In this document: piece by piece, positions 43,977 through 46,736 of the stretch | Layout of the letters: every line of letters starts with the position of its first letter | Numbering within the stretch: the first letter of the stretch is position 1 | Origin: Halomarina litorea | GTDB lineage: Archaea > Halobacteriota > Halobacteria > Halobacteriales > Haloarculaceae | Length of the DNA stretch: 64,000 nucleotides | Direction of reading: 5' to 3' | NCBI RefSeq assembly: GCF_024227715.1 | Contig: NZ_CP100448.1 | Location: 930,001 to 994,000, forward strand | Notes under the pieces: model-generated | What the model was told of the DNA's origin: nothing | Database searches by the model: none | What the model saw: the letters and a program-made list of their open reading frames with translations, nothing else | Program-made: the position numbers and the translations under genes

Positions 43977-44123
43977 ATGAGTGAATCCGACGCAGCGGTC
44001 CAGCAGTTCATCCGGAAGGCAGACGAGGTGTTCCACGAGTACGAACGCGGCTACATGGACGCCGACGCGGCGATGAACGCGATGGAACTCTACGTCGACG
44101 AACTGAAAGCGGAGACGCAGTAG
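43977..44123 (+). CDS. Small conserved haloarchaeal helical protein
   Basis: 48-residue acidic protein, probably a single helical hairpin (SDAAVQQFIRKADEVFHEYE, then DADAAMNAMELYVDEL). No cysteine or membrane segment. The codon usage supports coding. It is 78 bases after aCPSF1 and 58 bases before the thiolase gene, so it may belong to either unit. Function unknown. Confidence 0.6.
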   Translation: MSESDAAVQQFIRKADEVFHEYERGYMDADAAMNAMELYVDELKAETQ

Positions 44124-44181: not shown

Positions 44182-45336
44182 ATGGACGTCTTCCTCGTCG
44201 ACGGCGCTCGCACGCCCCACGGCGCACTGCTCGGGTCGCTCGCGGGCCACACGGCGGTCGAACTCGGGACGGTGGCCCTCGACGGCCTCCTTGACCGCGT
44301 CCCGGTCCCCCCCGACGCCGTCGACTGGGTCTGCCTCGGCAACGCCATCCAGGCGGGACTGGGGCAGGTCCCCGGCCGACAGGCCGTCGTCGCCTCCCGC
44401 CTCCCCGAGACGACACCCGCGACCACCGTCAACGAGGCGTCCGGGTCGGGCCTGCGGGCCATCGCCCTCGGCACCGACCGCATTCTGGCGGGACGGAGCG
44501 AGGTGGCCATCGCCGGCGGGATGGAGTCGATGACGAACGCGCCCTTCCTCGTCCCCGACCACCGGCGGGGGCGACGGCACGGCGACAGTAGACTGGTCGA
44601 CTCGATGGTCCGCGACGCCCTCTGGGACGAGAGCTACGACGCCCACATGGGCGAACTGACCGAGGCGCTGGTCGAGCGGGAGGGCATCTCGCGGGAGCGA
44701 CAGGACGAGTACGCCGTCGAGAGCAACCGGAAGGCGCTGGCGGCCATCGAGTCGGGGCGGTTCGCCGACGAGACGGTCACGGTGGAGACGCGCGACGGGC
44801 CAGTCGACACCGACGAGGGCCCCCGGGACACCTCGATGGAGCGACTGGGCGACCTGCCGGCCGCCTTCGGCGGGACCATCACGGCGGGCAACGCCTCGAA
44901 ACTGAGCGACGGGGCGGGGGTCGTCCTGCTGGCCTCCGGCGACGCGGTCGAGGACCACGGGGTCGACCCCCTCGCGCGCGTCGTGGACTACGTGGTGACC
45001 TACCGCGACCCGAAGTGGTTCAACGACGCCGTCCCGGACGCCGTGGAGGCGTTGCTCTCGAAGACGGGCCTCGACGTGGCAGACGTGGGCCTGTACGAGT
45101 TGAACGAGGCGTTCGCCGCCCAGATGGTCCACACGAGCGACCGTCTGGGTATCCCCGCCGACCGCCTGAACACGCGCGGCGGGGCCGTCGCCTTCGGTCA
45201 CCCCATCGGCGCCAGCGGCGGGATGCTCGCCGCCTCGCTCGCGTACGCCATGCGAGACGACGACGTGCGCTACGGGATGGTCGGGATGAGCATCGGCGGG
45301 GGCGGCGGCATCATGCTCCTCCTCGAACGCGCGTGA
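44182..45336 (+). CDS. Thiolase-fold protein with both catalytic cysteines replaced by serine
   Basis: 384 residues, full-length classical thiolase (acetyl-CoA acyltransferase) fold: N-terminal VFLVDGARTPHGALLGSL, middle GRDxx-like region, NEAFAAQ, and GGAVAFGHPIGASGG with His340. The nucleophile position, normally Cys in VN-x2-C-x-SG, is Ser87 (TVNEASGSGLRA), and the second catalytic Cys, normally C-x-GGG-x-G, is Ser370 (MSIGGGGG). Normal Claisen or thiolytic chemistry through Cys is therefore unlikely. Serine-type beta-ketothiolases are known in haloarchaeal PHA synthesis, but the second change is also present here. It may be a regulatory or altered enzyme; family identity is firm, function is not. 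Confidence 0.88.
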   Translation: MDVFLVDGARTPHGALLGSLAGHTAVELGTVALDGLLDRVPVPPDAVDWVCLGNAIQAGLGQVPGRQAVVASRLPETTPATTVNEASGSGLRAIALGTDRILAGRSEVAIAGGMESMTNAPFLVPDHRRGRRHGDSRLVDSMVRDALWDESYDAHMGELTEALVEREGISRERQDEYAVESNRKALAAIESGRFADETVTVETRDGPVDTDEGPRDTSMERLGDLPAAFGGTITAGNASKLSDGAGVVLLASGDAVEDHGVDPLARVVDYVVTYRDPKWFNDAVPDAVEALLSKTGLDVADVGLYELNEAFAAQMVHTSDRLGIPADRLNTRGGAVAFGHPIGASGGMLAASLAYAMRDDDVRYGMVGMSIGGGGGIMLLLERA

Positions 45337-45340
45337 GGAT

Positions 45341-45580
45341 TCAGTCGTCTCGGTCGTCCGGGTCGTCGAGGTTCAGGCGCGCCCCGGGGTCGGTGCCGTC
45401 CCACGGTTCCATGAGGTAGGTGTCGAAGAGGTGGCCGACGGCGAAGATGGTGAGGGGCAGGCCGACCATCGCGAGGACGGCGACGAGGAACGACTCGACG
45501 CCGCCCGGCATCGAGAGTGCGATCGGTGACGTCACGTGGTGACAGTACGCACCCGACGGACATGAGTGTTCGTCGCACAT
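45341..45580 (-). CDS. Small single-span membrane protein
   Basis: 79 residues from ATG 45580, or 56 residues from the internal ATG at 45511 (MPGGVESFL). One hydrophobic segment (SFLVAVLAMVGLPLTIFAV) precedes a polar acidic tail (NLDDPDDRDD). The longer form adds a Cys/His-rich N-terminus (MCDEHSCPSGAYCHH), which may not be real. Function unknown; the 3' end lies only 5 bases from the thiolase stop. Confidence 0.55.
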   Translation of the reverse strand: MCDEHSCPSGAYCHHVTSPIALSMPGGVESFLVAVLAMVGLPLTIFAVGHLFDTYLMEPWDGTDPGARLNLDDPDDRDD

Positions 45581-45584
45581 GAAG

Positions 45585-45593
45585 GGTTATACC
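45585..45593 (+). promoter_or_regulatory. TATA-like element of the aminotransferase at 45615
   Basis: GGTTATACC, centred 26 bases before ATG 45615, fitting leaderless transcription. It is itself a 9-base near-palindrome. Confidence 0.5.
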
Positions 45594-45614
45594 CCATCGC
45601 TCCGGGGTAGGGGT

Positions 45615-46736
45615 ATGACCGGCTTCTCACGGCGAATCGAGGAGATCTCCATCAGCGGCATCCGGAAGGTGTTCGAGGCGGCGGGCGAGGACGCCATCAA
45701 CCTCGGCCTCGGGCAACCCGACTTCCCGACGCCGGCACACGCGAAGCGAGCGGCCATCGACGCCATCGAGTCGGGGCGCGCCGACGGCTACACCTCGAAC
45801 AAGGGCACGCTCGAACTCCGGGAGGCCATCGCCGCCAAACACGACCGGGACAACGACTTCTCGGTGGACCCCGAGGATGTCATCGCCACCGCGGGCGGGA
45901 GCGAGGCCCTCCACATCGCCATGGAGGCCCACGTCGAGGACGGTCAGGAAGTACTCTTTCCGGACCCCGGATTCGTCTCCTACGACGCCCTCACCCGACT
46001 GGCCGGCGGGACGCCGAAACCCGTCGAACTCCGCGAGGACCTGACGATGGACCCCGCCGCCGTCGAGGCGGCAATCACCGAGGACACCGCCGCGTTCGTC
46101 GTCAACTCCCCGTCGAACCCGACCGGCGCGGTCCAGTCCGAGGAGGACATGCGCGAGTTCGCCCGCATCGCGGACGACCACGACGTGCTCTGTATCACCG
46201 ACGAGGTGTACGAGCGCATCACGTTCGGGCGGGACCACCACTCGCCGATGGCGTTCGCCGAGACGGACAACGTCGTCGTCGTCAACGCCTGCTCGAAGAC
46301 CTACTCCATGACCGGGTGGCGACTCGGGTGGGTCGCCGGCAGCGAACGACGCATCGAGCGGATGCTCCGCGCCCACCAGTACGTGCAAGCGTGCGCCAGC
46401 GCCCCGGCGCAGTTCGCGGCCGAGGCCGCCCTCTCCGGCCCGCAGGACGTCGTCGGCCAGATGGTCGAGACGTTCGAGGAGCGCCGCGACATCCTGCTGG
46501 ACGGACTGGAGGAGATGGGACTGGACACCCCCACGCCGCAGGGGGCGTTCTACGCGATGCCCCGCGTGCCCGACGGGTGGGTCGACGCGGTCATCGACCG
46601 CGGCGTCGTCGTCGTCCCCGGCGACGCCTTCGGGCAGGGCGGCGCGGGCCACGCCCGCATCTCCTACGCCGCCAGCACCGAGCAGTTGAAACAGGCCGTC
46701 GAAATCATGCGCGAGGCGACCGACGCGGTCCGCTGA
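45615..46736 (+). CDS. Class I/II PLP-dependent aminotransferase
   Basis: 373 residues, fold type I. Internal aldimine lysine is Lys228 in NACSKTYSMTGWRLGW; the NSPSNPTGA (Asn of the PLP pyridine contact), DEVYERITF (Asp-x-x-Tyr) and C-terminal RISYA (substrate carboxylate Arg) motifs are present. This is the aspartate/aromatic/alanine aminotransferase type. The substrate is not decidable from sequence. One of the two aminotransferases in this window could provide the missing succinyl-DAP aminotransferase step, though nothing links them except the gap in the pathway. Confidence 0.92.
   Translation: MTGFSRRIEEISISGIRKVFEAAGEDAINLGLGQPDFPTPAHAKRAAIDAIESGRADGYTSNKGTLELREAIAAKHDRDNDFSVDPEDVIATAGGSEALHIAMEAHVEDGQEVLFPDPGFVSYDALTRLAGGTPKPVELREDLTMDPAAVEAAITEDTAAFVVNSPSNPTGAVQSEEDMREFARIADDHDVLCITDEVYERITFGRDHHSPMAFAETDNVVVVNACSKTYSMTGWRLGWVAGSERRIERMLRAHQYVQACASAPAQFAAEAALSGPQDVVGQMVETFEERRDILLDGLEEMGLDTPTPQGAFYAMPRVPDGWVDAVIDRGVVVVPGDAFGQGGAGHARISYAASTEQLKQAVEIMREATDAVR

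What the first reader, a model, noticed from the sequence alone, without database searches (positions are those of the whole stretch)
44182..45336. Thiolase with both catalytic cysteines changed to serine
The Cys-nucleophile site reads VNEASGSG (Ser87) and the second C-x-GGG-x-G cysteine reads MSIGGGGG (Ser370), while the NEAF and GHPIGASGG (His340) motifs and overall length are intact. Loss of only one cysteine would suggest decay or a known serine-type variant; loss of both with everything else conserved suggests selection for a different chemistry, such as a hydrolase, a ligand-binding or a partner-dependent enzyme. Serine-type beta-ketothiolases have been described in haloarchaeal PHA synthesis, but I cannot say that this one belongs to them.
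Basis: partly seen in the sequence, partly recalled or inferred. Interest (0 to 1): 0.6.

Follow-up and report, generated by a model that had tools for sequence, protein, structure and literature searches.

The report
Haloarchaeal thiolase with two catalytic serines
A family of thiolase enzymes found only in salt-loving archaea so far has swapped both of its supposedly essential catalytic cysteines for serines in every member examined, which suggests that the enzyme works by a different, cysteine-free chemistry rather than being broken.

Summary
The ORF at 44182-45336 (384 aa) is a classical (TIGR01930-type) thiolase with Ser87 in place of the nucleophilic Cys and Ser370 in place of the second catalytic Cys. 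Asn308 (NEAF) and His340 (GHP) are kept.

It is not local decay. All 72 distinct orthologues compared read Ser/Ser; all 114 other thiolases compared are Cys/Cys; none is mixed. The Ser/Ser proteins form one clade (support 100 with the trait columns masked), found in 75 of 392 sampled genomes of the order and under purifying selection (median dN/dS 0.17). About half of the members contain no cysteine at all. Further active-site changes are fixed in the clade. In its own genus the gene is present (Ser/Ser) or absent at the same site.

It is not the known serine-type haloarchaeal PHA thiolase (BktB/PhaA alpha), a different subfamily with an adjacent second subunit.

Most likely it is a working, neofunctionalised acyl-CoA enzyme with Ser87 as acyl acceptor. 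In some Natrialbaceae it sits with acyl-CoA ligase, acyl-CoA dehydrogenase, MaoC hydratase, CoA-transferase and MmgE/PrpD genes, but not in this window. The reaction is untested. I rate it a new variant of a known kind.

The parts
44182..45336 (+). Ser/Ser thiolase ORF, 384 aa
   Evidence: TIGR01930 365.5 bits over a cut-off of 240.55; Pfam Thiolase_N and Thiolase_C
44440..44442 (+). Ser87 codon (TCC) at the position of the nucleophilic Cys
   Evidence: Ser in 72/72 clade members, Cys in 114/114 others; codon TCN in 60/60
45289..45291 (+). Ser370 codon (AGC) at the position of the second catalytic Cys
   Evidence: Ser in 72/72, Cys in 114/114 others; AGY in 59/60, TCG in 1
45103..45105 (+). 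Asn308 of NEAF, conserved oxyanion-hole residue
45199..45201 (+). His340 of GHPIGASG, conserved catalytic His
45001..45003 (+). Tyr274, invariant in the Ser/Ser clade and Ala/Gly/Ser in most Cys/Cys thiolases; in the region corresponding to the loop that becomes disordered in oxidised C. acetobutylicum thiolase
43977..44123 (+). upstream 48-aa conserved small ORF; marks the presence/absence site in sister genomes, not part of the enzyme
45579..46736 (+). downstream aminotransferase, neighbour in many Haloferacaceae; not shown to be functionally linked

Best explanation
A functional, neofunctionalised clade of classical thiolases in haloarchaea that works without cysteine. Proposed mechanism: Ser87, at the start of the helix at 86-102, with His340 nearby, takes the acyl group from an acyl-CoA or 3-ketoacyl-CoA as an O-acyl enzyme. 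Asn308/His340 stabilise the enolate and the Gly loop after Ser370 stabilises the acyl oxyanion. Ser370 replaces the base Cys as a hydrogen-bonding proton relay. The most likely physiological role is C-C cleavage or acyl transfer on a short or branched acyl-CoA in organic-acid catabolism. Shown: the residues, their strict conservation, one clade, purifying selection, predicted thiolase fold, linkage to acyl-CoA genes in some Natrialbaceae. Inferred: that Ser87 is the nucleophile, the role of Ser370, the substrate and the direction.
For: Ser/Ser in 72/72 against Cys/Cys in 114/114, none mixed. One clade with SH-aLRT 100 when columns 85, 86, 87 and 370 are masked. dN/dS median 0.17, range 0.07-0.26, over 335 pairs. 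Asn308, Glu309 and His340 invariant in both groups. AlphaFold2 model with pLDDT 96.5, TM 0.97-0.98 to PhaA, E. coli and Clostridium thiolases. Coordinated fixed changes H13, E85, A86, G246, Y274, V284, G368, M369, G375, and loss of Arg348. In some Natrialbaceae, including two Natronorubrum species: acyl-CoA ligase (some), acyl-CoA dehydrogenase, MaoC hydratase, CoA-transferase III, Ser/Ser thiolase, MmgE/PrpD on one strand. Precedents for Ser at the nucleophile site in the superfamily: haloarchaeal BktB/PhaA alpha Ser-His-His and DpsC Ser-His-His.
Against: No biochemical data. In PhlC of the Friedel-Crafts acylase, Cys-to-Ser at the nucleophile abolishes activity, so Ser is not automatically competent. 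Ser370 is a poor base by ordinary chemistry. The operon context is confined to part of Natrialbaceae and is absent in the window and in most other loci. A C378S Clostridium thiolase was used as the non-disulfide form for crystallography; the passages read give no activity for it.
Confidence: 0.45

Rival explanations
1. Retro-aldolase or lyase: it cleaves a 3-hydroxyacyl-CoA (made by the MaoC hydratase) without a covalent acyl enzyme, like the thiolase-fold steroid aldolases Ltp2 and Sal, so the cysteines are not needed.
For: The linked Natrialbaceae clusters contain acyl-CoA dehydrogenase and MaoC hydratase, and the annotated ones show no 3-hydroxyacyl-CoA dehydrogenase in the stretch. An acyl-CoA dehydrogenase/MaoC/thiolase-like trio is the arrangement described for these aldolases. 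A new invariant Tyr274 could be an acid/base.
Against: Sal has Gly at the nucleophile position and needs a YDCY motif; Ltp2 has YDHF; both work with a DUF35 domain. Here NEAF is intact, no DUF35 gene was seen in the named annotated neighbourhoods, and Ser is kept strictly. Those aldolases belong to the SCP2-type branch.
Confidence: 0.2
2. Ser-dependent acyl-CoA or 3-ketoacyl-CoA hydrolase, or acyltransferase: Ser87 is acylated and the ester is passed to water or another acceptor instead of CoA.
For: Two strictly conserved Ser hydroxyls with His340; thiolase-fold KSIII-like acyltransferases exist.
Against: No acceptor or partner gene is conserved next to it; no assay.
Confidence: 0.2
3. Catalytically dead CoA-ester-binding or structural protein, like mycobacterial TLP1.
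For: TLP1 shows that the fold can lose the Cys and thiolase activity.
Against: In TLP1 none of the catalytic residues is kept; here Asn308 and His340 stay invariant, the Ser residues never drift to Ala or Gly, and purifying selection is strong.
Confidence: 0.1
4. A true biosynthetic acetoacetyl-CoA/3-ketovaleryl-CoA thiolase for polyhydroxyalkanoate, made insensitive to oxidation by removing both cysteines.
For: 73 of 75 carriers in the order sample have PHA synthase (TIGR01836), against 157 of 317 non-carriers; in one family 44/44 against 61/81. E. coli and Zoogloea thiolases are irreversibly inactivated by H2O2.
Against: The association is confounded by phylogeny: PHA-negative genomes of that family fall mostly in four genera. 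Most PHA-positive genomes lack this gene. H. mediterranei makes its PHBV precursors with PhaA and BktB alpha/beta.
Confidence: 0.05

Closest known systems
Classical thiolases of the Cys-His-Cys type (Clostridium acetobutylicum ThlA, Ralstonia PhaA, E. coli and Zoogloea thiolases; TIGR01930)
   Same: Fold (TM 0.97-0.98), about 38-44% identity, NEAF and GHP motifs, length, HMG motif
   Different: Both catalytic Cys are Ser; changed residues before the nucleophile (EA for KV), in the 272-284 loop, Arg348 lost, GMS before the Gly loop
Haloarchaeal two-subunit beta-ketothiolases BktB/PhaA (catalytic residues Ser-His-His)
   Same: Haloarchaeal; Ser at the nucleophile position
   Different: BktB alpha is of the SCP2-like branch with HDxF, BLASTP finds only the GHP region in common, and it has an adjacent small subunit gene. 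The present protein is a single gene with NEAF
Thiolase-fold steroid aldolases Ltp2 and Sal
   Same: Thiolase fold that lost the nucleophilic Cys; acyl-CoA dehydrogenase and MaoC hydratase as neighbours in part of the carriers
   Different: SCP2-type, YDxF/Y motif, DUF35 partner, Gly at the nucleophile position (Sal)
DpsC-type KSIII enzymes with Ser-His-His
   Same: Ser in place of the Cys nucleophile in a thiolase-superfamily enzyme
   Different: KSIII family, polyketide biosynthesis
Mycobacterial thiolase-like protein TLP1
   Same: Annotated as a thiolase, lacks the catalytic Cys
   Different: Gly at the nucleophile site, no catalytic residue kept, extra C-terminal domain, monomer

Membership tests
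TIGR01930 acetyl-CoA C-acyltransferase (classical thiolase) | Score over the curated cut-off | tested here: met
   365.5 bits against 240.55
TIGR01930 acetyl-CoA C-acyltransferase (classical thiolase) | Thiolase fold | tested here: met
   AlphaFold2 pLDDT 96.5, TM 0.97-0.98 to solved thiolases
TIGR01930 acetyl-CoA C-acyltransferase (classical thiolase) | Nucleophilic Cys (Cys88/89) | tested here: not met
   Ser87 in 72/72
TIGR01930 acetyl-CoA C-acyltransferase (classical thiolase) | Second catalytic Cys (Cys378) | tested here: not met
   Ser370 in 72/72
TIGR01930 acetyl-CoA C-acyltransferase (classical thiolase) | NEAF Asn and GHP His | tested here: met
   Asn308 and His340 72/72
TIGR01930 acetyl-CoA C-acyltransferase (classical thiolase) | Thiolase activity | not testable with these tools
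   Needs an assay
Haloarchaeal BktB/PhaA two-subunit thiolase | Ser at the nucleophile position | tested here: met
   family residues
Haloarchaeal BktB/PhaA two-subunit thiolase | Same sequence subfamily as BktB alpha | tested here: not met
   BLASTP of the window protein with the own-genome BktB-alpha-like protein: 28.9 bits, GHP region only; that protein is 78% identical to the pHME505 gene at 97865-99016
Haloarchaeal BktB/PhaA two-subunit thiolase | Adjacent small OB-fold subunit gene | tested here: not met
   None beside the window gene or beside the named carriers
Ltp2/Sal thiolase-fold aldolase | YDxF/Y motif in place of NEAF | tested here: not met
   NEAF kept
Ltp2/Sal thiolase-fold aldolase | DUF35 partner domain | tested here: inconclusive
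   None among annotated neighbours of named carriers; a distant gene cannot be excluded
Ltp2/Sal thiolase-fold aldolase | Retro-aldol activity | not testable with these tools
   Needs an assay

The most novel reading that the evidence does not exclude
A separate, Cys-free catalytic class within the classical thiolases: a Ser/Ser/His/Asn active site that performs a reaction other than thiolysis (for example hydrolytic or retro-aldol cleavage of a branched acyl-CoA) in haloarchaeal organic-acid catabolism.
Probability: 0.35. Interest if true: 0.7.

Novelty: new variant of a known kind. Interest (0 to 1): 0.5.

Why it matters
Thiolase catalysis is taught as needing two cysteines. Here is a natural family, in dozens of species including Haloferax mediterranei (which, as I recall, has working genetics), where both were replaced together by serine and kept. 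It allows a direct test of what the sulfur atoms are for, and whether Ser can do Claisen-type chemistry or forces another reaction. These genes are annotated as 'thiolase family protein' with a fatty-acid beta-oxidation GO term, which may be wrong.

Tried and rejected
Local decay: rejected; 72/72 orthologues keep Ser/Ser and the clade is under purifying selection. Sequencing error: rejected for the same reason. Hidden replacement Cys: rejected; no Cys column exceeds 9 of 60 and 31 members have none. Membership in BktB/PhaA: rejected. Conserved operon partner: rejected as a general feature; the downstream aminotransferase (Haloferacaceae) and dihydroorotate dehydrogenase (Natrialbaceae) are lineage-specific neighbours without a clear link. 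The primary paper on BktB (PMC3753943) is not held; its content is cited through a review. No AlphaFold coordinate file was available to scripts, so active-site distances were not measured. One search used a wrong column offset for the residue pair (only its printed motif contexts are valid); it was redone. One search ignored strand and was redone.

Full report
What was checked. The ORF at 44182-45336 encodes 384 aa. It scores 365.5 bits on TIGR01930 (cut-off 240.55) and matches Pfam Thiolase_N and Thiolase_C. Its closest solved relatives are the classical bacterial thiolases such as Clostridium acetobutylicum 4wyr; Ser87 and Ser370 align with the two catalytic Cys.

A conserved clade, not decay. 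In the family sample, 13 further genomes carry an orthologue at 61-70% identity; the next matches are near 40%. All orthologues read Ser/Ser. In the order sample 75 of 392 genomes, in 27 of 95 genera, carry one. In the phylum sample the matches outside the order are at 38-46% identity, and those examined are Cys/Cys. In total 72 distinct sequences are Ser/Ser, 114 are Cys/Cys and none is mixed. A maximum-likelihood tree with columns 85, 86, 87 and 370 masked puts the Ser/Ser rows on one side of one branch (SH-aLRT 100, stem length 0.76). The Ser87 codon is TCN in 60 of 60, the Ser370 codon AGY in 59 of 60 and TCG in one, which fits one origin for each change, each one base away from TGY. dN/dS over 335 pairs with dS below 1.2 is 0.07 to 0.26, median 0.17.

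Own genus. In eight genomes of the genus, two others (loci L249, L250) have the Ser/Ser gene between the same small upstream ORF and the same aminotransferase. In five (L244-L248) the small ORF stands beside the aminotransferase with no thiolase between. Four of those five were also negative in the whole-genome search. So sister genomes have the Ser/Ser gene or an empty site, never a Cys version at that site.

No hidden cysteine. 31 of 60 clade members have no Cys at all, and no column has Cys in more than 9 of 60; the Cys/Cys proteins have at least three each. The window protein's Cys51 is not conserved.

Other fixed changes. Invariant or nearly invariant in the clade and rare elsewhere: H13, E85, A86, G246, Y274, V284 (Pro in 114 of 114 others), G347, G368, M369, G375. 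Arg348 (Arg or Lys in 112 of 114 others) is Met or Ile. Residues 272-284 correspond to the loop 280-292 that becomes disordered in oxidised C. acetobutylicum thiolase (correspondence from the alignment), and include the position of the VMG fingerprint said to set substrate size. This points to a changed active site, not loss of it. The AlphaFold2 model has pLDDT 96.5 and pTM 0.94 and matches solved thiolases at TM 0.97-0.98.

Not the known serine thiolase. The haloarchaeal PHA thiolases BktB and PhaA have catalytic Ser-His-His and two subunits (review PMC7137286). The own genome has a relative of BktB alpha (L145, TSSSGG and HDMF motifs), 78% identical to the H. mediterranei pHME505 gene at 97865-99016, which I take to be BktB alpha; it overlaps a 363-base gene downstream. 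BLASTP between it and the window protein finds only the GHP region. H. mediterranei carries both kinds on the same plasmid.

Context. In the window the gene stands between an aCPSF1 gene plus a small ORF, and an aminotransferase; nothing suggests an operon. Neighbours vary across 42 loci. In Natrialbaceae a dihydroorotate dehydrogenase follows in nearly all loci. About a dozen also hold part or all of a same-strand set: acyl-CoA ligase, acyl-CoA dehydrogenase, MaoC hydratase (RipB/Ich-like), CoA-transferase III, thiolase, MmgE/PrpD; most of it is confirmed in the annotated records of Natronorubrum bangense and N. aibiense. No 3-hydroxyacyl-CoA dehydrogenase is annotated in those two stretches. 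This makes acyl-CoA catabolism the best guess for the role, at least there.

PHA. 73 of 75 carriers have PHA synthase against 157 of 317 non-carriers (tallied by hand), and 44/44 against 61/81 in one family. The PHA-negative genomes of that family fall mostly in four genera, so this is weak evidence after allowing for kinship.

Mechanism. Because Ser never drifts to Ala or Gly at either site, a role for both hydroxyls is more likely than mere loss. The preferred model is an O-acyl-Ser87 intermediate with His340 and Asn308 in their usual roles and Ser370 as proton relay. Against: Cys-to-Ser in the PhlC acylase kills activity. Retro-aldol cleavage as in Ltp2 and Sal is the main rival, but those enzymes have another motif in place of NEAF, a DUF35 partner and (Sal) Gly at the nucleophile position. 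None of this has been assayed.

Limits. A bacterial or intermediate form may exist. Whether any experimental paper has already examined this protein could not be settled, since the key papers on haloarchaeal thiolases are not in the library.

Noticed in passing
L181, L227, L228 (Natrialbaceae) and L217, L218 (Natronorubrum): Acyl-CoA ligase, acyl-CoA dehydrogenase, RipB/Ich-like MaoC hydratase, CoA-transferase III, Ser/Ser thiolase and MmgE/PrpD lie on one strand (the ligase is missing in L217 and L218); pathway unknown. L182 and L222 show remnants (short MaoC pieces).
   Followed up: partly
window 43977-44123 and 45579-46736; L244-L248: The Ser/Ser thiolase gene is present or cleanly absent between the same small ORF and aminotransferase within one genus, a presence/absence site.
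   Followed up: yes
L173 10601-11671 and most Natrialbaceae loci: A quinone-dependent dihydroorotate dehydrogenase follows the thiolase on the same strand in nearly all Natrialbaceae carriers, without an obvious metabolic link.
   Followed up: no
Ser/Ser clade position 306: Glu before NEAF is Trp in 43 of 72 clade members and Glu in all 114 Cys/Cys thiolases; a possible split into two subtypes.
   Followed up: no
L145 (own genome, C1 near 1555437): A BktB-alpha-like thiolase with TSSSGG at the nucleophile site coexists with the Ser/Ser thiolase in the same genome.
   Followed up: partly
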